Assembly (NCBI RefSeq): GCF_000835495.1
Contig: NW_015622541.1
Location: 3,720,001-3,784,000 of the forward strand
From: Cladophialophora immunda
Lineage: Eukaryota; Ascomycota; Eurotiomycetes; Chaetothyriales; Herpotrichiellaceae
DNA length: 64,000 bases
Reading direction: 5' to 3'
Part shown: positions 17,530 to 31,120 of the stretch, piece by piece
Layout: every line of letters starts with the position of its first letter
Position numbering within the stretch: the first letter of the stretch is position 1
Notes under the pieces: model-generated
Databases searched by the model: none
The model's input: only the letters and a program-made list of their open reading frames with translations
What the model was told of the DNA's origin: nothing
Position numbers and translations under genes: made by a program

Positions 17530-19372
17530 ATGTGCACGGCTATGGACTCTGACGCAGTGACTTCGGGGTCGTCTGTCATCCCCCTGCACCGTGCAAAGGA
17601 TGACATACCCCTAGTGGCGTTGACACATCTGGAGGATGCTTCCAACAAACCCGTCAGCGGGATTTCAAAACATCTAGAGCAAGCAAGAACTCCCGAAGAA
17701 GCGAAAGCGGAGAAGCGTTTTGTGCTGAAGACGGACCTCATCGTCCTTCCGCTACTCGCCTCCATGTACTTCCTTGCTTCTTTGGTAAGAGTTCCTCTCC
17801 CAGCTTCGAACTTAATCCTGATAGCCACTGACAAGAGTACCAGGATCGTGGAGATGTGGGAAATGCAGCAGTAGCTGGCATGACGGATGAGCTCCATCTG
17901 ACACCTCACCAGCTTAGTACCTGCATCACCATATTTTATGTCGGGTACATCGTCTTTCAGTTGCCAGGCTATCTATGTCTGAGAATCGTCCGGCCCCCTG
18001 TCCAGCTCGGGCTAGCTCTCATGGTTTGGGGCACGTTCAATACTCTGTAAGACTGGAGGCCGTCAACCACAAACTCTCTCATACAGACACTAATTCTCGC
18101 TAGAATATGTGTTGCAAAGTCATATCAAGCCATCGCCGGTCTTCGTGTAGGTGTTGGTGTTGGGGAAGCTTTTCTCCAGGCAGGCCCCCTGTATCTGTCA
18201 CTTTGGTATAAACGAGATGAATTGGCAACAAGAGGTGCTATTTTCTTCGGCACCAGTGCGGTTGCTGGTGCTTTTAACGGCATCATAGCCTATGGCATTG
18301 AGAAGAACCTTGATGGTGCTGATGGTTGGTCAGCCTGGCGATGGCTGTTTCTCATTGAAGGTAAACTCAGTACATATTGTGCTTGACTTGGCTGATGGGG
18401 GACCTTCAGGTGTCGTTTCGGTCGCTTGGGGCTTCGTTGTTCTCTTGATGCTGCCGCCATTGCCTGAGCAAGTTCGGTGGGGATTTACCGAGGAAGAGAA
18501 GGCTCTCGCAAGACGCAGAACGATCGAGGGTTATAATGAGCCCAACGCGCAGATCAAGCCGAAACAGATCCTCGCCATCTTCAAGGATCGTCGAACCTAT
18601 CTTTACAGTACATTGATCCAGGGCCCCTAAACTGATTGCGGCAGATACTGACAGCTGTAACAGTAATATTCTACTCCTGCACCAATCTGAGCCTGGCATG
18701 TTTCAGCAGCTTTCTGCCAGTCATTCTGAGGTCGTTTGGATATTCACAGCTACAAACTCAGGCCTTGACAATTCCTGTGTTTTTCTGCGCCGCAGTCTCA
18801 GCGGTGGGAACCAGTCTGGCGTCAGACCGTCTCCAGCAACGTGCACATGTTCTGTTGGCTTGTTTTGTGTCGATGGGCATGGGATGGTTGATCCTGATAT
18901 GCAGCAAGTCTCAGCACCTCTCGTTCGCGGGCTGCTTCTTCATCGGTATCGGGACTTATCCTAGCATCATTATCGGCCAGGTCTGGCTAAATAACAATAC
19001 ACCCGGTTTTACCAAAAGGTGAGCAACTCTGAGCCCGACCTGTCAGAATCCTTTCAGAGAGACGTGGCTGCTAACATGCGGTAATGCGACTTTAGAGCAG
19101 CTGCGCTCGGCGTGCTCGGCACGGTTGGCCAGTGCTTTTCCATCATCGGCACGCAGGTCTACAGCGATCCTCCCCGATATTACCGTGGCAATGGCTTTGC
19201 TTTTGGCGCATCCGTGGTTGGCGGAATTGCCACCATCGCGCTATTCTTTGATCTGAGAAACGAGAATGCAAAGAAGCGTAGGGACGCGGACACGGACTTC
19301 GCCAGGAGCCAGCGCTCTCTGGGTATCGAGGACATCGGCAACCAGCACCCGGACTTCTACTACTTTACATGA
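17530..19372 (+). CDS. MFS transporter, DAL5/allantoate permease (ACS) family
   Basis: Likely proton-coupled importer of an organic anion. Exons: 17530..17784, 17844..18046, 18104..18360, 18410..18607, 18664..19018, 19096..19372; 1545 nt, 514 residues. The exon 4/5 junction is the least certain; an alternative acceptor at 18654 would add 3 residues. N-terminal KTDLIVLPLLASMYFLASLDRGDVGNA and the helix starting HQLSTCITIFYVGY are hallmarks of the anion:cation symporter group (DAL5, TNA1, FEN2, SEO1). The central cytosolic loop has FTEEEKALARRR. The C-terminal helix block contains TYPSIIIGQVWL and ends in a charged tail. First gene of a probable catabolic cluster, so the cargo may be that pathway's substrate. 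Confidence 0.92.
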
Positions 19373-20117
19373 ACGAAGCAGAAGCTCATCAGAAAAAGAA
19401 GCTGGAGAATGTCATCCCCTTTGCCTATGGAAGACTAAGAGGGAGCAGGGCGATTGTTAGACGAGAGGCGCTCGAGCAAGACTGGCAACAGTATACAATG
19501 GATTCAGACTGTTTACTTTGTCGAAAGACAAACATTATTCGTCTCTCTACAAAATGAAGACGTCATTCTCACTCGGGCCCGCTTTTGTGACTGTAGCAGT
19601 CTATGCTTCTCTCTACAAGCCGATTTTCGCTCCTCGACGTCCTTCACACCTCTGGTTTGAAGTCCGAAGGCTACTTTCACCGTCCCTTTGGAAGGGCCAG
19701 CATCAAACATGCCGATGCCCCTTCGACACCGATTGCTGTCTGTTATCGCTCCGGCGTGCGCTTTCGGTCCATCCCGATTGTCGGCAAAGCGAAAGCGGCG
19801 ACACGATGGGGGCTTGACTGACATGTTGCAGTATCTCTCGATGAGCCAGTTCAGCCTGCTCAGCCTGCTCAACGGCGAGGGTAACACTCGACTGTGGTTG
19901 GCCGTTTACGTCTCATGCATTCTTTGTATGGCGCTCCTTTTCATTGAAAAGCAAGCCACTCTCTCCTCCTGGCCTTGGACGACATCACCAATATACCGAT
20001 TTTATCCTCGTCCGCTTTGAAAAGGCAAAAGATGCCTCACGCATCATCAGAAGGTGTGTTGATGGGGGAATGATTACTCCCTCGTTACATGGGCAATGTG
20101 GAAAGCTGATCAGCCGC
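19373..20117. other. Intergenic region, transporter to MmgE/PrpD gene
   Basis: About 745 bp. It contains a perfect 6-bp inverted repeat with a GAAA loop at 19517-19532 in the transporter's 3' flank. No gene is supported. The following gene's frame opens upstream of its chosen ATG without a better start. Confidence 0.4.
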
Positions 20118-21524
20118 ATGACAGAGACCGTACCAGCGAGTATTACTCGAAAGCTGGCCGAATTCGTACACCAAACGACATGGGACGACATCCAACCCAT
20201 CCGCAATGTCCTCGAGTGCGGCCTCTTGGACTACATCGGGCTTGCCTCATACGCGGTCGATCACGTCGCCTCAAGCCCGGTCTTCATTGAGGCGGTGAAC
20301 AACCTGTCCGCCACGGGGCCAGGGTCTGTCCTGGGCCTCTCCCGCAGGTACCAGGCGCAATACAGTGCCCTGCTGAACGGGACCTTGGTGCACTCGATGG
20401 ACTGGGACGACACGAACAGCGTCGCGTCTCTGCATCCGGGCGCCTCTGCCATCTCTGCTGCCCTCGCTCAAGCTGAGCTGGAGATGAGTGCCGCCGCCCC
20501 CGGGGGTGGCCGCAAGGTGACGGGACACGAGTTCCTCACCGCCGTGGCCGTGGGGTACGAGGTGACATGCCGGCTGGGACGGTCGATCAGCGACGTGCTG
20601 CACCGGGTCGGCTTCCACCCGACGTGTGTGGCCGGGGTGTTTGGCGCCGCCGCCACGGCCGGGAAACTCGCGGGCTTCGACGCCGGCCAGATCGAGCACC
20701 TGTTTGGGGTGGTCGGGAGCATGGCCAGCGGGTCGCTGCAGTGCTTCGAGAACGGCGGCTGGAACAAGCGCTTCCACCCGGGCATCGCGGCGCACAACGC
20801 GCTGCTGGGCGTGCAGTTCGTCAAGGCCGGCATGGTGGGCGCAGCCAGGGCCATCGACGGGAAGCGCGGCCTGCTCTACGCGTACGCCCGCCTGCCGGAG
20901 CCGGACCTGCACATCGTCGACGCCCTGAGCTCCTTCTGGGAGACGTCCAACACGGCCATCAAGCCGTACCCGTCGTGCCGTCTGACGCACGGCCCCATCG
21001 AGGCGGCCTACGAGCTGCGCAAACACTTCCTCCCGGACCTCGACTCGGCACTGCCGCTCGACGACACCACCATCGAGGTCACCGTGGGCAGCAAGGCGTT
21101 CCAGGGCGTCGGCAGCACGGCTCCGAACAAGATCCGCCCGACCAACATCGTCGAGGGCCAGTTCAGCCTGTACTTCCAGTTCGCGGTGGCCTGGCTGCAC
21201 GGGCGCAACACGTGGGACTCGTACCGGCTGCTGCAGGACGAGAAGGTGCTGGCGCTGTGCCGGCGCATCACGGTGCGGGTCGACGACGACCTCCGCGACG
21301 GCTCGCTGGTCACCGTGGCCCGCATCGGCGACCGGGCCGTCAAGATCGAGCACCCGCTCGGCGAGCCCGGGAACCCCATCGGCCTGCCCGAGGTCGAGGC
21401 CAAGTTCCTGCCCATGGCCGAGAAGGTCTACGGCGTCCAGGGGGCCAGGGACATCTTGACCCTGTTCCACGACCTGGAGAACCAGGACGATCTGAGCGTC
21501 TTCACGAGGGCTCTTAGGACCTAA
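20118..21524 (+). CDS. MmgE/PrpD family protein
   Basis: Member of the fold that includes 2-methylcitrate dehydratase (PrpD) and cis-aconitate decarboxylase. 468 residues, single exon, starting MTETVPASITRKLAEFV; an upstream in-frame ATG at 20070 would add 16 residues. Family landmarks are DYIGLASYA, the substrate-loop-like NGTLVHSMDWDDTNSVASLHPGAS, GYEVTCRLGR, GFHPTCVAGVFGAAATAGKL and the active-site-type KPYPSCRLTHGPIEA. The HxMDWDDT/LHPG and KPYPSC motifs are those seen across PrpD relatives, so it is probably an active lyase, but substrate cannot be told (methylcitrate, aconitate or another polycarboxylate). From about 20,270 to the stop the sequence is markedly GC-rich. It sits in the putative catabolic cluster. 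Confidence 0.9.
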   Translation: MTETVPASITRKLAEFVHQTTWDDIQPIRNVLECGLLDYIGLASYAVDHVASSPVFIEAVNNLSATGPGSVLGLSRRYQAQYSALLNGTLVHSMDWDDTNSVASLHPGASAISAALAQAELEMSAAAPGGGRKVTGHEFLTAVAVGYEVTCRLGRSISDVLHRVGFHPTCVAGVFGAAATAGKLAGFDAGQIEHLFGVVGSMASGSLQCFENGGWNKRFHPGIAAHNALLGVQFVKAGMVGAARAIDGKRGLLYAYARLPEPDLHIVDALSSFWETSNTAIKPYPSCRLTHGPIEAAYELRKHFLPDLDSALPLDDTTIEVTVGSKAFQGVGSTAPNKIRPTNIVEGQFSLYFQFAVAWLHGRNTWDSYRLLQDEKVLALCRRITVRVDDDLRDGSLVTVARIGDRAVKIEHPLGEPGNPIGLPEVEAKFLPMAEKVYGVQGARDILTLFHDLENQDDLSVFTRALRT

Positions 21525-21826
21525 AAGCCCCCCTCAGCTCTATGAACCATGAGTAGCAACATATAGTCAATTCCCATAACAGAGGCATCTGGTAGAAATC
21601 TTGAACTCTACCTTCCCAAAAACGCATCTGGCTATACAACTAGTCTTTCGAGTGTCTGCTTTCTTTGATTTCACCTGGATACTCTCTAGGTCTGAGTTTG
21701 TCCTATTATTTCAAACCCATCTTTGTCCGTCGATATGGAGAATAGTTCCTGAGTGATAAGAAGCTTTGATAATCTCTCTTACGGACATTCTACTGAGGCA
21801 CCTAGTAAAAGCAACCATGTGCCGCT
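21525..21826. other. Convergent 3' intergenic region
   Basis: About 300 bp, AT-richer, between the MmgE/PrpD and AtuA-like stops. No gene seen. Confidence 0.5.
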
Positions 21827-23987
21827 CTAAACTCTCTGATTGTGCTGCAAATGCCCTTGGCTCATGCGGACAGAATCAGAGGCCAGCAGAGAATTTCGAA
21901 GCTCCTCGGTCAACCGTAGCGTCATGAGAGGCATGTACTGCTGAGACCCGTGCACGTCGCTTTCCATGTAGCCCCCGGAACAGCTGAGTTCGCCTCCCCG
22001 TTTCCTGGGCAGGGTGAGCTTGAAAGCCAACGCCTGGTCAAAGAAGCCACAGTAGACGACTTCATCGACCGATCGCCCGAAGAGCTGGGCCATCGCGTCC
22101 GTGCTCAGCATTCCGGACGACTTTACCGCCTTATAGACGACGGGATCGTCGAATATCACGTCAAAGGTGAGCTGGAAAGGACCTGCATTCTTCGAACGAA
22201 TGACCTTTGCCACGTCCCGAAGTGTTGTGGGATCGCGAGGTTGGAAGTGCTTCGTCTCATTCTGGGCGGTGCGCTTGGTGACGCCATTGGTAGCGATCTT
22301 GGTCTCCAGAACTGGAATCGTGTCGTTGGATATCGCGACCCCAGACGTGGAGGCTCGAATGACTATTGTGTCCCATGGAAATAGACCATCTAGGGTGCGG
22401 TCTTGCGCAGCTATTTTTCCATCGCCGTTTGATATGGGGTGGCCGCTTTCTTCTCCGTTGCGCAAATTCATCAGGTGATAGATAGAAAACTGACAGCAAG
22501 GACCGACATCTAATTCTGTCATCCCACCAATGCCGAATGCAAAGTTTCCAGAAGTAGCCATCTGTCCTTTATAGGCGCCATGGGAGCAATAAACGCGTGC
22601 AGTAGATGCAACACTTTTGGCCAGCGTTGGCGAGTCTGCGAGGACTTCGCCCACGATGAAGACTTCTTTGGAATTCCAGATTTCATCAGTAGAGGTTAAT
22701 CCGTCGGCCCGCCTCTCCGGAGCGCCATAGATGTGAAAATCGAGTTTCCACTTGCCGTCCATATCTCTGTGTTGGCGGGCGCAGCGGTTCTTGCCAACCT
22801 CGAGATATTCGTGTATCTGGCCGATAAGAATCGGATCTTTGAATGACCCAATAAAGAGGTTACGGAACCCAATGACACGAGCGCCCTCTAATTTGACCGT
22901 ATAAGATAATCCTTCGGAAACCGAAAAGTGGAAGTTGCCTCCCCGCACGCGAACTGAAGTTCCGTCAGGTAACTGTTCATAAGTGGTATTGGTCAGATCC
23001 AGATATCCTCCTGGGCCGTGCAGGATGTCGGGACGGGACTTCTCATAGAGGGTGTGCGCAGCCACACTGAGGGGAACACATTTTGCCGCGGGATCAAGGG
23101 GTGAAATGTCGAACGTCCCATCTTTGTAGACCAAGGCTGTTGCGCCAGATGATTTGGGCGTTGCACACAGGCCACCACATTCCATGATCTTTCCCATGTG
23201 ATAGAAACCCCCTAGCAAATTGTTGCCAAGTGAGCTGAAGGACGAGGATGAGGACTTGACGCTGTTGATGGCACAAAACGCCACAAATATCGCAGGGTCG
23301 TACGCGCGCCCCGCGACGAGGATATCAAAGTCGGGGTTTGATTGCATAGCATTCAAGATGGGCTCAGGGCCCATTTGAGCCAGTATGCGCGGAGTGGCAT
23401 GGATTTCTTCACTTGTTAGTGCAGTGACTTCATCTCCACATCCAGATATGTCCCCGGCCAGAAGTTTGTTCTCTACAACTTCCTTGGATAATTCAGAATA
23501 CACGGCAAGGACCTTCAACTCCCGGCGGCTGGATGTCTGCTATTAGTTCACAAATACTAAGCGTTGTAATCGAGACTGACCAGTTGAGCGACGCGCTAAT
23601 CTCCTTGATCATCTCCACGAAGAGATCAACATGCTCGTTACTACCGTCTCCTCCGACCGAAGAGATTAGGACAGGTACGTGATAATTGATGACTGCCCGA
23701 ATCAACTTGGTCAAGTCCCTTTTGTAGGATGTTTCAGGGCAAGTCATGGTGCCCAATGCCAATTTCGAGGGCCCAGAATCTGTTGAACCAGAATCCATGA
23801 CGACGGCGAGGGGCATGGGTGACTTGGTCAATTCGTCCAGTTTGTCGGTCAGGAGATGCTCTTCGAAGCCATATCCCAGCATTCCCAGTGGGGTGACAAT
23901 CGCACAGAGCGGCTCTGGACTCCCTTTCGGGGATGATTCAGCGCCATTTGCAGAGGCATTGCTCGATGAAACTGCCATCGGTGTCAT
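21827..23987 (-). CDS. AtuA-like (DUF1446) protein fused to DUF4387
   Basis: Exons are complement(23581..23987) and complement(21827..23528); the 52-nt intron has a GTCAGT donor; 702 residues. Residues about 35-560 match the AtuA/DUF1446 family named from bacterial acyclic terpene utilisation: SSVGGDGSNEH, LVAGRAYDPAIF (near 207-218), HMGKIMECGGLCA (near 246-258), GPGGYLDLTN and RVRGGNF. Residues about 571-675 (RDVAKVIRSKNAGPF, TFDVIFDD, FFDQALAFKLTLPR, VHGSQQY) match DUF4387, which I recall as a separate small gene beside DUF1446 genes in bacteria. AtuA's reaction is not established. The fusion implies the two parts act together. Probably cytosolic, with no signal peptide. It is divergent from the dioxygenase gene and shares its promoter. 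Confidence 0.88.
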
Positions 23988-24678
23988 CGTCTCCAGAGAC
24001 CAGCTTGCCGACTGTTGATAGCAACTTTTGACTCAATTGCTAGCAGGTATTTCAACGTTCATAGAAAGCCAAGGTGCCGGGGATGGCAATGAAGATGGAT
24101 TGAGAGAACGAAGGTATAGATTTCAGTAGTCTCGCTAGGTCCTGGCTCATGAATGGCGGACCCCTTGCAGTCCATGGTGGTTTGACTCCGGCAGCATGTT
24201 GATTCCATGCCGCAGCGAGTGATCCATCGTTCGGCTTCATGGGCGCGAGCGTGATTCACAAACGCCCAAGCTTGCGAGTTGGTCTCAAGGCTGCTGTTGG
24301 TAGCATTGAATGAAGATTGACGTGGGGAGAAGCTTCGATGGTGACCACGTGACATACCGAAAATCGGCCACGGCCAGCGCCGACTCCGTTTTTCGCTCGG
24401 CGTCGCCCCTTTTCCCCCTTTCCCCTTCTCCCGCAGCCTGCCATTGTTTGTGTCGTGCTCCTCTTGCCGAACCCCTCTTACATGACATCGGCTTCTGGCG
24501 ATGGAGGTTGAAACGAAATGGCCAAGGCTGCCTGGCGCTTTTGCCCTTTGCGAATCAAATGATATGAAGACCTGGACGGCAGAGTCCGATATAAGAAACA
24601 TGGTCACTTCGATGCCACAATACTCTAGACTGACCACTCTGCGCAACTAAACTACAAGATCAACTTCGAGGCAAGAAA
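23988..24678. promoter_or_regulatory. Bidirectional promoter, AtuA-like and dioxygenase genes
   Basis: About 690 bp between divergent ATGs. It contains a CACGTG E-box at 24346-24351, flanked as TGACCACGTGACA, and a CGG-N18-CCG inverted repeat at 24189-24212 that a Zn2Cys6 dimer could bind. A CT-rich stretch lies at 24405-24435. Sequence matches only. Confidence 0.45.
24346..24351. promoter_or_regulatory. E-box CACGTG
   Basis: Palindromic bHLH core in the shared promoter, about 330 bp from the dioxygenase ATG and 360 bp from the AtuA-like ATG. Confidence 0.3.
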
Positions 24679-25830
24679 ATGGCTGAAAGTCAGATTGGGA
24701 CAAACCTTTTGGATCGCGGTAGGTTCTTGTTTGAACTCCTCTTCGGGGTCTCTTTGGAGGTATTCTATACAGAGACTAATTTGACGATGGGCGCCGCAGA
24801 GTGGCTGGCTGTGGATGCCCAAAACGATCCTGACCGATGGATCCATCGATTCACAGAGGAAGAGCTCAAGGATATCGATCATGCTTTGCAAACCACGTTG
24901 AGAAAAGGCCACAAGAGCTGCGAAACGATGACCAAGGAGGATTTCCCGCTAGGCCCATCGGAGAAACCGTTGCAGCAGGTCCTCGAGCATCTGGAGAATG
25001 ACATGGGGCTCTTTGTCTTGCGTGGGATCCCTGCCGACAACTACACAAAGGCAGAAATGAGGATGATCTACTGGGGAATCGGACTGAACATGGGCGTGGC
25101 AGTGTCGCAGAGTGGGAAGGGAGATGTTCTGGGGGATGTCAAGAACTTCGGCAACAATATCCACCCATCTTCCACCACTGGCCGTGGATATATGTCCCGT
25201 GTCCATCTATCATTCCACACCGATAGCTCTGACATTGTTGGTCTCATGGTACTGCAAGTTGCCAAAAGTGGCGGGCTCAGCATGATTTGCAGCTCGGTGG
25301 CCGTGAGGAACGAGATTGCGCGCCGGCGACCCGACCTGCTTAAGGTCTTGTACGAAGACTTCTACTGGAGCTGGAAAGGAAACTCCCCCCCTGGAGCTGG
25401 TCCCTACTATAAGATTCCCATTTTCAGCGAGGAAGGCGGACGCTTCTCCTGCCGCTACATTCCGCCGCACATCTTCACGGCTCAAGAGTACCCTGAGATT
25501 CCCCGTCTCACTGAGCAGCAAAAGGAAGCTATTAAGTTGGTCGCTCAGATCGCCAATGAAGAGAAGTTCCACTTTGCCATGATGTTCGAACCAGGAGATA
25601 TACAGTTCCTGAACAACCACATCACCTTGCACGCCCGCACTGAGTTTGAGGACGGGGACACAGAGGAGACAAAGCGACACTTGTTGCGAGTGTGGCTGTG
25701 TCCCCCAAACAGCCGGAAGCTGAGCGCCAATGTCGTCGATTTCTATAGAGATCAGAGGCCAGGCACGGTGCGAGGAGGATTCCATTCGCAGACGGGCAAA
25801 TTTGTGTTTGAAACAACCGTCCAGGGATGA
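24679..25830 (+). CDS. TauD/TfdA-type Fe(II)/2-oxoglutarate dioxygenase
   Basis: Non-haem iron oxygenase coupling 2-oxoglutarate decarboxylation to substrate hydroxylation. 383 residues if unspliced. A 54-nt in-frame segment (24719-24772, GTAGGT...ACAG) looks like an intron; removing it gives 365 residues, deletes a hydrophobic stretch (FLFELLFGVSLEVFYT) and reads on normally. Fe ligands are H180 and D182 in SFHTDSSD and the distal His in HITLHARTEF (H317), with the 2-oxoglutarate-binding Arg region TKRHLLRVWL (numbering unspliced). The C-terminus GTVRGGFHSQTGKF resembles fungal clavaminate-synthase-like proteins. Substrate unknown. It may hydroxylate or desaturate the cluster's substrate. 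Confidence 0.9.
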   Translation: MAESQIGTNLLDRGRFLFELLFGVSLEVFYTETNLTMGAAEWLAVDAQNDPDRWIHRFTEEELKDIDHALQTTLRKGHKSCETMTKEDFPLGPSEKPLQQVLEHLENDMGLFVLRGIPADNYTKAEMRMIYWGIGLNMGVAVSQSGKGDVLGDVKNFGNNIHPSSTTGRGYMSRVHLSFHTDSSDIVGLMVLQVAKSGGLSMICSSVAVRNEIARRRPDLLKVLYEDFYWSWKGNSPPGAGPYYKIPIFSEEGGRFSCRYIPPHIFTAQEYPEIPRLTEQQKEAIKLVAQIANEEKFHFAMMFEPGDIQFLNNHITLHARTEFEDGDTEETKRHLLRVWLCPPNSRKLSANVVDFYRDQRPGTVRGGFHSQTGKFVFETTVQG

Positions 25831-26235
25831 TTTGTAGCTGGGTAGGTAGCCTAAGTAGGTTGTGCCAGTAGGATCTACCAGAATGATTAAGATTATAAGT
25901 CATGTCCAGCCAGGTCTCTCAGTATGAGTGTATTCGGTATGCAGGATTGCATGTATGCCAGTGGTATGTGTGTACATACCTTGATAGGCATGTATCTGGA
26001 CGCTGGAGCCTCGGCACAAAGCCTCTCAAAGCCTCCAGTCCACCATTTTTTCTTCCCACTTACTCTCTTCATTCTTTTCAATCTCTTTGGCCTGTCTTAT
26101 TCATCTTCATCGCCGACCAATTAACGCACTCACTGGCCAGTCAATTGACCGCCTATCGTGCCTCGCAATCTAGTGAATAGCTCCCAGAAGCACCGCCCGG
26201 GGAACGCCCCAAATTTCTGATGAAGCCACCATACA
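25831..26235. other. Intergenic region, dioxygenase to regulator
   Basis: About 400 bp between two same-strand genes. It presumably contains the dioxygenase terminator and the regulator promoter, which has a CT-rich tract near 26040-26100. No gene seen. Confidence 0.45.
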
Positions 26236-28417
26236 ATGGCTAGGCCAGCTGCATGCATCACTTGCCGACAGAACAAGGTGAGGAAGCCTAGGATTGAAAT
26301 TGACTATGGCGACCACAAGATTGTCTGCATATTCGTACCTGACACAATCAACAGCTCCGTTGCAATGCATCTTCTACCTTCCCAGCGCCCTGTTCGAGAT
26401 GTGGAGCACGAAACATTGCCTGCAGGATTGATCTAAATTACAAGCGAGTCCCGACGAGGAAGTATGCACCCAGGTTAAGGCATCCGCCGATATATCACAC
26501 GCTAACGACCACACTGTCGAGTCGAACAACTCACTCAAGAACTCGACAGGCTCAAGTCAGGTCTCCAGGTGACGGGAGAGAGCGAGAAATGGCCAAGCCA
26601 GCCTCTGCTTACTCTGTCAAGCATATCTCCCGGTGGCGACATCTCCCCAAGAGCTGGAGCTATCCCTGAATCTGCCTCGACAAGCCCGCTCAAAAACTCT
26701 CAGAGTGGCCATGACAAGACTTTCAAGTTTGAGGATCTTGTTCTGCTAAAGACTGATGTGGATGAACTGTTTCAAGAGTGCGTACCCTCGAGCATGAGAC
26801 AATAGACTCTTGACGTCGGAAATATGCATTAACTGTTTGCGACCACTTAGGTATTTCCTTCATTATCATCAACAGCTTCCGGTTCTTGAAGTGCAAGCTG
26901 AGCCTGCGGCCATCATAGATGCGAGTCCCCTCCTGTTTTGGACCATCGTCTTCACAGCTTGCCAAAATCTCCCGTCACAGCAACACCATTTTCGAAGTTT
27001 GTGCAACAAACTGCCCAGCCTTTTGGGCCATCTTATGATGCGTCGTCAAGACTCAATTTACGCAATACAAGCGCTGCTCATCTTGAGCATGTGGCCCCCT
27101 CCGGTCCAACGACAAGCTGACGATGTACGGTGGTTATACAGCGGCATGGCTATGCAGATGGCAATGCATGCCGGATACCACCGTGTTGGTTATGAGCATG
27201 AGTACCACGCGTACACTTATTCCAAGTCACTTTCAAACGAGCAGAGCCATACACGAGTATGGCGTTGCTGGTGTTTTGTCAATGCACTGTAGGTGGGCCA
27301 TCACCCTCTGCAAGTTTATGCTTCGCTAACGATGCTCAGACTTAGCTGCGAACTCGGTCTCCCCTGTCTCGTCCCATTCGACGCTCTCGAGATCAAACCT
27401 GGAGACGAAGCCGCTCTGCCCGCAGACTTCATCTCCAAGCTTCGTATCGTCTTCTATATCAGTCGAATCAATGACACTTTGGGCGACAATACGTGTAAAG
27501 ATGGAAGCCACCGGATGAGGACGGTCCGTCTATTGGAGAAGGACATCAACTCGTTGGTATTTGGGCTTCGTCAGTCCCCAACGCAGTGGAATCCCTCTGT
27601 CGAGTTCGTGCATCTGAGCGTCCTTCTTAACCTATATTCTTGCTGTCTCCGCTGGTCTTCTCCGGTGTCCATCAACGACCCCGACCATACGATAATCCAA
27701 AGTTCCGCGGCCCAGGCTGCCTCCCAACTGATCAAGCTTTATTCAAGCTCGCCATCGCTCATCAATGATACAGCAAGTTCTGAGCCACGCCCGCAGAGGT
27801 ACTATCCTAAATTCTATCTTCGATTCAACGTCATCGCACTCCTGATGCTCCTCAAGATTTCCGTGCTCAACAAGATCTCCTTACGAGAACTTGGCGAGGT
27901 GGACGACGCCATTCGACTTGGCCATGGGGCGCTCATGTCTCAGTCTTCTTCCGAGGGCGACGAATTTCACAGGGCCGCGAGTGTAGTGGAAGTCCTTTGT
28001 AAGAAGGGTGTGATTGACTCTGTCCGAGGAAAATCATCTGTTGAGTCCCGCTTTGGCGCCTCCCTGTGGCTTGAACTTGTTGCTACTGCGATCCGTTGGC
28101 GTCGCCAGAACTCGAAAAGGGGGCCACGGCCAACAGACGGTGGCCGCGGCAACACTGATAACAACAACGATAATCCTGGAGACAGCGCGATCCCATCTTC
28201 AAACATGGGCAGACCTACTGGGTCCGGAGATGGAGTGATGTCAGGTTCTACAGCGGCTGATAGTGTGGATGCCGCCAGGTTGACTATGGCCGATGTCCAG
28301 GGAAACGTGAATTTGTTCCCTTTCAGCATCGAGGACTGGTCTGCCTACCTAGATGTCACAGAAGCCGATCTGGGATTTGGCTGTGAATCCAGTGGGTGGG
28401 GAGGATTGGGGGGTTGA
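26236..28417 (+). CDS. Zn2Cys6 transcription factor
   Basis: Probable pathway-specific regulator. Exons: 26236..26277, 26355..26461, 26550..26777, 26851..27288, 27340..28417 (1893 nt, 630 residues). The binuclear cluster C-x2-C-x6-C-x9-C-x2-C-x6-C uses C7, C10, C17, C27, C30 and C37 and is split by intron 1, followed by LNYKRVPTRK. The middle-homology region spans YFLHYHQQLPVLEV to QSHTRVWRCW. Intron 2 is problematic: the natural coiled coil VEQLTQELDRLKSGL lies just before 26550 in the right frame, but the nearest AG (26521) gives the wrong phase and the in-phase acceptor (26549) skips the coil. The C-terminal 100 residues are Gly/Asn/Asp-rich. It lies within the cluster, between the dioxygenase and the second transporter. 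Confidence 0.85.
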
Positions 28418-29016
28418 ACAGGTGAAGTCATGCCCCGGCCGTTCTAAACAGTTATTCTCAGATCTATCGTTGAGTCCGAGTTCTCGCAATGTCCGAACTA
28501 CTGCCCTGATTTGGACGACCGCCTGCTAACTTTCTGGTATTAGTGAGATATGCAAGCCTGCGGAGCCCGCGAGTCTTACTGTCTGTGGACCAGAACACGA
28601 GATTCGAAAGTCCAGTCAACTTCGATTCAGCCTGCATTGTCACGGTGTTCTTCCGTGAAACGTCAAGTCTATTTGGTGCCCATCACCATCGGAGGCCGAT
28701 CTGAGCGTGCACCCCGATTGAGTGTTCACCATCATTTCTGCAACTGGCCGAACCTCGGAGTCGGCCGATCAGACCATCGACATCAATGGGAGCGAGCTGC
28801 TTTCCCTCCCCGGATTATCATCCCCGGTATCAACCTAATCTCTCCACAGCTCCATGGTTTGAAGCCGCCGAACGCGGGGGAGTCGTGCTCATGGAGCGAA
28901 TGTGTCCGGGTATATATTTTCAAAAAGGGGTCTCCTTCCATCTACCTCCCCGGTTTGTTCAAGGGTACGCCGTGGACAAAACTGTTATAGTCCTGCGACC
29001 GCCAGACATCATCATC
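28418..29016. promoter_or_regulatory. Promoter region of TRI12-type transporter with CGG inverted repeats
   Basis: About 600 bp. It contains CGG-N3-CCG at 28690-28698 and CGG-N6-CCG (overlapping TCGGCCGA) at 28756-28767, candidate Zn2Cys6 dimer sites. The frame of exon 1 stays open upstream to about 28786, but the best start is ATG 29017. Confidence 0.45.
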
Positions 29017-31120
29017 ATGAGTGTCGTGCCCCTGGAAAACACCGACAAAGTCGAACTCGAACGGCTGCACGATCTCGCCGTCCATCATGAATACGCCTCT
29101 ACCGTCGTGGAGAAGGACCAGAAGGTTCAGCCCAGGGCCGCCGAGAGTCCAGCTCTTCCGACCGATTCGGACGAGGGGAGCACCTCTCTGGACCATCAAG
29201 ACCAAACGGTGTGGACGCTCAAAACCTTTCTTGCCACGCTCGCATTGGCCGGCCTCTACGTTGGATCTCAGATCCCTTTATACTTCGTTGGAGCAGTGCT
29301 GTCATATGTGGCTGCCGACATTGGGGGCGTCGAAGCATCATCATGGCTCTCTGTGGCCTACGCTCTGCCTCTTGCAGCAGTTGCTCCATTCTGCGGCTAC
29401 CTACAGGATCTGCTGGGGCGCCGGAACATTACACTTGCCGGTGGCGTTATCATCATGATGGGCTGCGTGATCGTGGCGACTGCTCACCACTTCCGAGAAG
29501 GTATCGTGGGCATGGGCTTTGCTGGAGCGGGCGCGGCAATAGGAGAACTCAGTGCTCTGGCTGGGTGGGTTGTTTGATCTCTTGATCAGCCAGTCCTGAC
29601 CGCTTGACCCAAGATCACTGACAATAAAACTAGGACATCCGAGCTAGTGCCTGTCAACAAGCGCGGGACGTATCTGGCATTGGTCACCGGTTTCGTCCTT
29701 CCCTTTACTCCATATGTTATATACGCTCAGCTTCTAGCCGCGTATCACACGTGGCGTTGGGGCCTCTGGATCTGTTTGTTCGTTTCACTGATCGCTCTCG
29801 CTCCAGCCCAGCAGCCACTGACACGCACCACAGAATATGGAACGGGATTTGGTGGCTGGTTCTGTTGGTCATCTACTTCCCCGAGTCGCAGACAAGGGCA
29901 AAGGGGAGAATGTCGACAGAGGCCTTGAAGAAGATTGACTACATCGGCGGAATAACTTCAGTCACAGGCCTGACTCTCATGTGAGTTTCCGGTTTGCGTC
30001 GGCAAGTCGCTACTTTCTGACGAATCGCAGCTTGGTCGCGCTCGAAGCTGGAGGCTACTCTCACCCCTGGAAGAGCGCATATATCCTTGCTCAGCTTCTG
30101 GTGGGGATTGCATTGCTCGTTGCATTCGTTGTCTGGGAGTGGAAATATTGCAAAGAGCCGATGGTCCCGCACGAACTCTTCACCGGGCAGCGCATAGTGG
30201 CCATGGCGTATGGGATTGCGTTCGTCGCAGGCAAGCTTCCCCGGAGATTCACAGGATCAGAAACTAACGAACCCTCCGGCAGGCATGAACTTCTATGCAA
30301 TGATCAACTTCTTCCCGCTGGTGTACCAGAGGGTCTTTCAGCCGGATCCCGTCAAAGTCGGGCTCAGAGGTCTGGGTCCGGGGCTAAGCACCACCCTGGG
30401 TGCTGTGATTGCCAATTCATCGCTTTCGTGGTTCAGGGGCCACAACAGAGAGATCCTGCTGGCAGGATGTGTTATTATGAGTATGTGTGCCGTCGCCGCC
30501 TCAGGGCAAGTTTCGGAGACATTTGTCGCTAACTTTGAATTTCTCAAGCTGCATTTGGCGGAGCTTTCGCAGCTGTGACGCCGGACCGAGAGGCCCTGGC
30601 GATAGGTCTAGGTATATGCACGGGCTTGGGCGTGGGAGCCGTCCTGGTGCCGGCCGCCACTGTCGCCATCACAGTCGCCCCGGACACATCGATCGCGACC
30701 TGCGTCGCGCTGTCGATCACGATCCGCGCCGTGGGAGGGGGTATCGGCGCCGCCATCTACTACAACATCTTCGTCAACAAGCTCAAGTCCACACTCCCGG
30801 CATACGTCGCCCAGAGCGCCGTCCACGCGGGCCTCCCCGTGGCGGAGGCGGCTGAGTTCGTCGAGCTCTTCGTCGGCGGTGGCGGTGGCGGCGGCAGCGG
30901 CGTGTCCCTCGACGTCGCCCAGCTGGTCCAACTCCCCGGCGTGAACGAGCGGATCATCGACGCGGCGTCGGTGGCCACCAGATGGGCGTACGCGGACTGC
31001 CTCAAGTACATCTGGCTGACCAGCATCGCTTTCGGCGGCTGTGCCATCATCGCCTGCCTGTTCCTGGGCAACGTCTCCAAGTACATGACCAACCGGGTGG
31101 CAGCGCGGATCAGGGAGTGA
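29017..31120 (+). CDS. MFS transporter, TRI12-like family
   Basis: Fourteen-helix drug:H+ antiporter-like protein related to the trichothecene efflux pump TRI12 and siderophore transporters. Exons: 29017..29564, 29634..29777, 29834..29980, 30031..30230, 30283..30480, 30549..31120; 1809 nt, 602 residues, all phases consistent. Intron 4 (30231-30282) uses a GC donor (CAG|GCAAGC) with a normal CTAAC branch and CAG acceptor. Markers are SSWLSVAYALPLAAVAPFCG, LQDLLGRRNITLAGG (MFS motif A), GTSELVPVNKRGTYLALVTG, IWNGIWWLVLLVIYFPES and a C-terminal VSKYMTNRVAARI tail. Exon 6 is strongly GC-rich and carries a Gly7 run near a periplasm-like loop. Last gene of the putative cluster; likely exports a pathway product or the toxic substrate. 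Confidence 0.92.

What the first reader, a model, noticed from the sequence alone, without database searches (positions are those of the whole stretch)
17530..31120. Candidate undescribed catabolic cluster: ACS transporter, MmgE/PrpD, AtuA-DUF4387, 2OG dioxygenase, Zn2Cys6 regulator, TRI12 pump
Six adjacent genes fit a coherent accessory pathway: import (DAL5-like), lyase (PrpD fold), AtuA-type protein, hydroxylation (TauD-like), control (Zn2Cys6) and export or resistance (TRI12). The AtuA-like and dioxygenase genes share one divergent promoter, and housekeeping genes (PP2A, PI31) bound both sides. I recall DUF1446, DUF4387 and MmgE/PrpD genes occurring together in bacterial operons near carboxylate transporters. 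The substrate is probably an organic acid or terpenoid acid, but this is inference, and I know of no described fungal pathway of this composition.
Basis: partly seen in the sequence, partly recalled or inferred. Interest (0 to 1): 0.88.

Follow-up and report, generated by a model that had tools for sequence, protein, structure and literature searches.

The report
Fungal branched-dicarboxylate breakdown gene cluster
A black-yeast fungus carries a small gene cluster whose key enzyme is a fused relative of bacterial citramalate lyase, next to a hydroxylase and an isomerase-type enzyme; some bacteria keep the same enzyme types together, which suggests a not yet described way of breaking down branched dicarboxylic acids.

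The parts
17530..19372 (+).
   Evidence: MFS_1 137 bits; gene model; role inferred
20118..21524 (+). MmgE/PrpD-family enzyme, 468 aa, intronless, GC3 0.898; proposed 1,4-dicarboxylate epimerase or dehydratase
   Evidence: PF03972 and PF19305 above cut-off; H92 D95 H106 H167 K217 K282 conserved, H162 at the IDS-epimerase Tyr145 position, C287 at the CAD His277 position; GC3
21827..23978 (-). Fused CmlA(AtuA)-CmlB(DUF4387) protein, 699 aa, exons 23581-23978 and 21827-23528; proposed citramalate-lyase-type C-C lyase
23979..24678 (.). 700-bp divergent intergenic region between the lyase and dioxygenase genes
   Evidence: coordinates of the two gene models; no regulatory motif established
24679..25830 (+). 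TauD-family Fe(II)/2OG dioxygenase, 356 aa, exons 24679-24718 and 24800-25830; proposed C2-hydroxylase
   Evidence: PF02668 122 bits; H153-x-D155 ... H291; PDB relatives 7n7v and FrbJ
26236..28417 (+). Zn2Cys6 transcription factor with fungal-specific TF domain, 630 or 634 aa, 5 exons; proposed pathway regulator
   Evidence: Zn_clus 27 bits, Fungal_trans 38 bits; two possible donors for the second intron; role inferred from position only
29017..31120 (+). TRI12/MFS transporter, 602 aa, 6 exons; proposed exporter or unrelated neighbour
   Evidence: TRI12 111 bits; membership in the unit not tested

Best explanation
This is a catabolic gene cluster for a branched 1,4-dicarboxylic acid of the 2-alkylsuccinate type, of which methylsuccinate is the simplest. 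The acid is imported by the MFS transporter. PrpD interconverts its stereoisomers by deprotonating and reprotonating C2. The Fe(II)/2OG dioxygenase hydroxylates C2 to give a 2-hydroxy-2-alkylsuccinate, which is citramalate if the alkyl group is methyl. The fused CmlA-CmlB enzyme splits that into a 2-oxo acid (pyruvate) and an acetyl unit without a CoA thioester. The Zn2Cys6 protein would switch it on; the TRI12 pump is optional. Shown here: gene structures, family membership, sequence and predicted-fold match to citramalate lyase, conserved catalytic residues in PrpD and the dioxygenase, co-occurrence of the three enzymes on contigs of equal listed length, bacterial neighbourhoods with the same families. 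Inferred: order of steps, substrate, independence of CoA, transport roles, regulation.
Against: Only the lyase step has a characterised relative with a matching substrate, at 33% (A) and 37% (B) identity to the E. coli O157 homologues; hydroxylation of a methylsuccinate by a 2OG enzyme appeared in no title or abstract start listed. Of 300 genomes of the Xenophilus order, 22 have DUF4387 and 38 a dioxygenase relative at E<=1e-25; 19 have both, and 1 (G307) has them within 10 kb (contig breaks may hide some). PrpD genes can be abundant (at least 115 matches in G307), so PrpD beside the dioxygenase (5 of 9) is weak evidence. The closest bacterial PrpD loci lie beside aconitase-family, PrpF or PEP-mutase/ICL-family genes in 4 of the 7 neighbourhoods inspected, and four PrpD relatives listed (P0157, P0165, P0184, P0194) carry a PrpF domain: both point to a tricarboxylate. 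The second-base Tyr of IDS epimerase is His in the window. L155, one of the three bacterial sets, lacks key residues in dioxygenase and PrpD.
Confidence: 0.37

Rival explanations
1. Same lyase-centred catabolic unit, but the substrate is a tricarboxylate or alkylcitrate/alkylitaconate: the dioxygenase hydroxylates the chain or backbone, PrpD dehydrates or hydrates a citrate-like hydroxy acid, and the CmlAB-type lyase cleaves a tertiary hydroxy acid to an oxo acid and acetate.
For: Close bacterial PrpDs lie next to an aconitase-family gene (L024, L029), PrpF (L027, L028) or a PEP-mutase/ICL-family gene (L029): 4 of 7 neighbourhoods inspected, families confirmed. Four PrpD relatives carry a PrpF domain (P0157, P0165, P0184, P0194). 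MmgE/PrpD includes 2-methylcitrate dehydratase (PMC12290011), and some fungal relatives (P0171, P0178) bear that name.
Against: No aconitase-, PrpF- or PrpB-like gene was recognised in the cluster. The 2-methylcitrate dehydratase model scores 41 bits against a cut-off of 950, though that model is for high-GC Gram-positives.
Confidence: 0.28
2. The three-enzyme core is real, but the first MFS transporter, the regulator and the TRI12 pump are unrelated neighbours. (Not exclusive with the explanations above.)
For: Conservation of those three could not be tested; the shared contig lengths concern only PrpD, AtuA-DUF4387 and dioxygenase. No shared promoter motif established. The L156 MFS is of another kind: best NCBIfam match aromatic acid/H+ symport family, below cut-off, and neither window MFS matched any of the nine bacterial neighbourhoods at E<=1e-4.
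Against: MFS genes also lie in the bacterial sets L117, L155 and L156, and a regulator plus transporters is the usual make-up of fungal accessory clusters (recalled).
Confidence: 0.35
3. A biosynthetic cluster of the itaconate or maleidride/alkylcitrate kind, with PrpD as cis-aconitate decarboxylase or alkylcitrate dehydratase and the dioxygenase as tailoring enzyme.
For: PrpD-family dehydratases occur in maleidride clusters (PMC8851701, passages); CadA of A. terreus is recalled.
Against: C287 replaces the CAD His277 (role of His277 recalled). The largest ORF listed in the window is 1,099 aa, so no polyketide synthase is evident (introns could hide one); no alkylcitrate synthase, MDC or PEBP gene was recognised. 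A C-C lyase of the citramalate type points to degradation.
Confidence: 0.08
4. Chance neighbourhood of unrelated genes.
For: Bacterial co-localisation of DUF4387 and the dioxygenase is rare (1 of 19 genomes that have both, among 300).
Against: Shared contig lengths of the relatives, contiguous bacterial sets with overlapping frames as called (L155, L156), and expected chance pairs in the own genome of 0.023 and 0.068.
Confidence: 0.05

Closest known systems
Citramalate lyase CmlAB (PDB 9erq, 9evf; E. coli O157 ECs_0760 and ECs_0759 are close homologues)
   Different: One fused polypeptide instead of two; [quoted passage not shown] activity untested
Bacterial AtuA-DUF4387-TauD-PrpD-MFS sets (L155, L156; also L117), seen here
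   Same: Same four protein families plus MFS, contiguous in L155 and L156; dioxygenase 42-53% identical
   Different: AtuA and DUF4387 separate; PrpD of another branch (26-28%); AtuA of another branch; L155 copies lack two iron ligands and a catalytic His
Pseudomonad itaconate/methylsuccinate cluster with MmgE/PrpD methylsuccinate isomerase (PMC12290011, passages)
   Same: PrpD-family isomerase for a branched C5 dicarboxylate; products at the pyruvate/acetyl level
   Different: That route runs on CoA thioesters (CoA transferase, acyl-CoA dehydrogenase, hydratase, citramalyl-CoA lyase); none of these was recognised in the window cluster
Fungal itaconate degradation IctA-IchA-CclA (PMC6320622, passages)
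   Same: Branched C5 dicarboxylate to pyruvate and an acetyl unit
   Different: CoA-dependent, mitochondrial by the authors' model, no fused citramalate lyase
Pseudomonas atu acyclic-terpene cluster (recalled)
   Same: Shares the AtuA name and Pfam family (31-35 bits, above the 22.8 cut-off)
   Different: Twenty other matches in this genome, some of them exons of one gene, score over 100 bits to AtuA; the window protein carries DUF4387

Membership tests
Citramalate lyase CmlAB | Large subunit homologous over its length to CmlA | tested here: met
Citramalate lyase CmlAB | Small DUF4387 subunit present | tested here: met
   Fused C-terminally; 9erq_B E 3.8e-13, PF14330 113 bits, Foldseek TMt 0.87
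Citramalate lyase CmlAB | Pyruvate- and ADP-contacting residues conserved | not testable with these tools
   Coordinates of 9evf were not available; motifs such as GRAYDPA, AAHTLYEKS and FSIYHL are shared with the E. coli O157 protein
Citramalate lyase CmlAB | Cleaves citramalate | not testable with these tools
   needs an enzyme assay
MmgE/PrpD family | Both Pfam domains and the conserved His/Asp/Lys set | tested here: met
   H92 D95 H106 H167 K217 K282
IDS epimerase / methylsuccinate isomerase | Second catalytic base Tyr (Tyr145/Tyr148) | tested here: inconclusive
   His162 in the window and in 4 of 5 clade relatives compared (Tyr in P0131); Tyr in 4 of 5 bacterial neighbourhood PrpDs, His in L116
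2-methylcitrate dehydratase | NCBIfam equivalog score | tested here: not met
   40.9 bits against cut-off 950 for NF042438; that model covers high-GC Gram-positives
cis-aconitate decarboxylase | Active-site His277 | tested here: not met
   Cys287 at that position; number and importance of His277 recalled
TauD/TfdA Fe(II)/2OG dioxygenase | Domain and HxD...H iron ligands | tested here: met
   PF02668 122 bits; H153, D155, H291
Maleidride/alkylcitrate biosynthetic cluster | PKS, alkylcitrate synthase, MDC, PEBP beside the dehydratase | tested here: inconclusive
   No ORF over 1,099 aa in the window listings and none of these recognised by eye; core set from PMC8851701
Conserved six-gene cluster | Synteny of all six genes in relatives | tested here: inconclusive

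The most novel reading that the evidence does not exclude
Fungi and bacteria of the Xenophilus order each assembled the same CoA-thioester-free oxidative pathway: PrpD epimerises a 2-alkylsuccinate, a TauD-type dioxygenase converts it to a citramalate-type tertiary alcohol, and a CmlAB lyase, fused in fungi, splits it to a 2-oxo acid and an acetyl unit. The large fungal AtuA-DUF4387 family, often named 'CaiB/BaiF enzyme' (2,270 hits at E<=0.001 among 7,999 scored candidates, only 120 listed), would then be a eukaryotic branch of citramalate lyases.
Probability: 0.28. Interest if true: 0.75.

Novelty: new variant of a known kind. Interest (0 to 1): 0.6.

Why it matters
It gives a widespread fungal protein family, annotated as unknown or as 'CaiB/BaiF enzyme', a concrete and testable activity through a crystal structure released in 2025. 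It names a three-enzyme pathway that would avoid CoA thioesters for branched dicarboxylates, compounds that matter in host-microbe chemistry and bio-based plastics. And it offers an apparent case of the same enzyme set coming together separately in fungi and bacteria, which would be good evidence that the parts work together.

Tried and rejected
Terpenoid acid as substrate: rejected, because the protein matches CmlAB over both parts and the AtuA model only weakly (34.5 bits, cut-off 22.8).

Bacterial PrpD relatives as direct donors of the whole cluster: tblastn of the window proteins (E<=1e-6) against the loci L024-L103 found none of 80 with a second cluster protein; 1 of the 14 of those genomes searched has DUF4387.

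Shared regulator-binding motif: CGG-N-CCG counts against shuffles were 3 against 4.7, 2 against 3.2, 4 against 3.5 (between AtuA and dioxygenase), 0 against 1.0, and 7 against 3.0 (before TRI12). Not used.

Literature: in the listings of searches for DUF4387 (0 papers), DUF1446 (7), AtuA/citramalate lyase (20 of 7,036 listed, swamped by Portuguese words), citramalate lyase (7), 9ERQ/9EVF/CmlAB (20 of 30 listed), DUF/PrpD combinations (30 of 35 listed) and methylsuccinate/citramalate/fungi/dioxygenase (15 of 18 listed) no title or abstract start described this fungal cluster or CmlAB; 7N7V gave 0. This holds only for that open-access library.

More bacterial sets: 398 genomes of the phylum gave 0 dioxygenase matches at E<=1e-80, which shows little. 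Plasmid records gave only relatives below 60% identity for dioxygenase (35 records) and PrpD (553 records); these contexts were not followed. No fold other than citramalate lyase stood out.

In the PrpD tree row L009_own has a very long branch and is probably a wrong reading frame; it was left in and given no weight. L116_prpD is a long branch too. Trees are midpoint-rooted for drawing.

Full report
What is there. The window lies in a 42.2-Mb fungal genome. Its AtuA-type protein is identical to PV07_01088 of Cladophialophora immunda, a fungus of the Chaetothyriales. I built intron models for all six genes; each gives one open reading frame, with GT-AG introns apart from one GC-AG in the TRI12 gene and two possible donors for one intron of the regulator. 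The dioxygenase was first read as one exon; comparison with its Fonsecaea ortholog (P0241) shows an 81-bp intron near the start, giving 356 aa. Flanking genes tested are an arginase-family protein, a calcineurin-type phosphatase and PI31. PrpD is a compositional outlier: GC3 0.898 against 0.55-0.71 for the five other cluster genes and two other window genes, and it has no intron.

PrpD. Its best solved relatives are iminodisuccinate epimerase, cis-aconitate decarboxylases and IRG1 proteins. PMC12290011 (passages) reports that characterised members share a four-carbon 1,4-dicarboxylate substrate, and adds a methylsuccinate isomerase. The six residues named there for IDS epimerase are all kept in the window. 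The second-base tyrosine is histidine in the window and in four of five clade relatives compared (tyrosine in P0131), and tyrosine in four of five bacterial neighbourhood PrpDs. The cis-aconitate-decarboxylase histidine is cysteine.

Dioxygenase. The HxD...H ligands are intact. Its solved relatives are 7n7v ('Predicted hydroxylase') and FrbJ. Marginal, below-cut-off matches to CsiD and to trimethyllysine dioxygenase decide nothing; CsiD is of interest only because it hydroxylates the dicarboxylate glutarate (recalled).

Own genome. DUF4387 has 7 matches, each with an AtuA match within 1 kb; PrpD has 18 matches that I merged to 14 loci, TauD 56 merged to 41. The window is the only place where AtuA-DUF4387 lies within 20 kb of either of the others. 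Two other PrpD-TauD pairs lie 6.0 and 11.7 kb apart; three pairs within 20 kb, the window included, compare with 0.54 expected.

Bacteria. Relatives of the dioxygenase were sought in 300 genomes of the order of Xenophilus (10 genomes at E<=1e-70), 399 of its family (3 at E<=1e-80) and 398 of its phylum (0 at E<=1e-80). I fetched surroundings of 13-18 kb for the six best of 11 places and all three. AtuA plus DUF4387 occur in 3 of 9 (L117, L155, L156), PrpD in 5 of 9 (L116, L117, L119, L155, L156); L118, L120, L121 and L157 have neither (checked by tblastn). In L155 the order is TonB receptor, AtuA, DUF4387, dioxygenase, PrpD, MFS, second MFS, on one strand, frames overlapping as called; in L156 it is GntR, dioxygenase, PrpD, AtuA, DUF4387, MFS, alpha/beta hydrolase; in L117 DUF4387, AtuA, MFS, PrpD, MFS, dioxygenase. 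MFS and TonB labels rest; GntR and the L156 hydrolase were named by eye. In L155 the dioxygenase has lost two iron ligands (His to Arg, His to Tyr) and PrpD the catalytic His, so that copy may be inactive or changed; L156 is intact. A wider count is sobering: among 300 genomes, 22 carry DUF4387, 38 a dioxygenase relative at E<=1e-25, 19 carry both, and only G307 has both within 10 kb. And the bacterial PrpDs closest to the fungal one (up to 45%) lie beside other genes: aconitase-family (L024, L029), PrpF (L027, L028), a PEP-mutase/ICL-family gene (L029), in 4 of 7 neighbourhoods inspected (part of the output cut; families confirmed). Four listed PrpD relatives are fused to PrpF. This favours a tricarboxylate-type substrate, my first rival.

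Trees. The cluster dioxygenases form an 8-row clade (100/99) within a 20-row clade (100/99) that also holds Zasmidium cellare; named bacteria and L156 lie in neighbouring groups. The cluster PrpDs form an 11-row clade (100/99) apart from the PrpDs of L117, L155, L156 and L119. The 15 fused AtuA-DUF4387 rows separate from all 22 bacterial rows with 100/100, and L155/L156 sit deep among the latter. So PrpD and AtuA do not come from the operon lineage seen in L155/L156; the same enzyme kinds seem to have been put together at least twice, although an old common set with later replacement is not excluded. I take this as the best evidence that they share a pathway.

Mechanism proposed. Import; PrpD epimerisation; dioxygenase hydroxylation at C2; CmlAB-type cleavage. 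It explains each enzyme with one substrate class and needs no CoA thioester, unlike the known fungal (PMC6320622, passages) and pseudomonad (PMC12290011) routes. My estimates: fused CmlAB-type lyase about 0.8; one pathway for the three enzymes about 0.7; 2-alkylsuccinate-type substrate about 0.37, methylsuccinate itself less.

Verdict. Observation confirmed; interpretation partly supported and sharpened; a new variant built from known enzyme families, worth an enzyme assay.

Noticed in passing
L158 31934-32251 and 32248-33618 (E. coli O157:H7 Sakai ECs_0759, ECs_0760): Annotated as acyl-CoA synthetase and 3-methylaspartate ammonia-lyase, but close homologues of citramalate lyase subunits B and A of PDB 9erq; this may answer the 2015 question where citramalate goes in that operon.
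   Followed up: partly
L155 7090-8163 and 8153-9589: The dioxygenase and PrpD of this bacterial set lack two iron-binding His and the catalytic His; possible loss or change of function.
   Followed up: partly
G307 (surroundings in L117): At least 115 MmgE/PrpD matches in a 5.7-Mb genome, an extreme expansion.
   Followed up: no
window 20118-21524: PrpD has GC3 0.898 and no introns among genes of 0.55-0.71, suggesting foreign origin or unusual codon bias.
   Followed up: partly
P0003 (Trichoderma velutinum): AtuA-DUF4387 sits inside the five-row clade of the window protein, suggestive of transfer between fungi.
   Followed up: no
G000 C7:1571952/1583633 and C3:5394051/5400084: Two further PrpD-TauD pairs in the own genome; the C7 PrpD (L010) groups with the bacterial PrpD of L119, which lies beside a dioxygenase, at 100/100.
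   Followed up: no
P0157, P0165, P0184, P0194: PrpD relatives of 672-704 aa that carry a PrpF domain as well.
   Followed up: no
P0348: A dioxygenase relative of 620 aa with additional alpha/beta-hydrolase domains; alpha/beta hydrolases also lie near the dioxygenases of L116 and L156 (by eye), hinting at an ester substrate.
   Followed up: no
L117 9862-10952: Two-gene TPP decarboxylase-like pair next to the dioxygenase; the first has a TPP_enzyme_C domain, the second was named by eye.
   Followed up: partly
P0001 and several fungal relatives: Depositors or UniRef name this family 'CaiB/BaiF family enzyme', which the Pfam scan does not support.
   Followed up: yes
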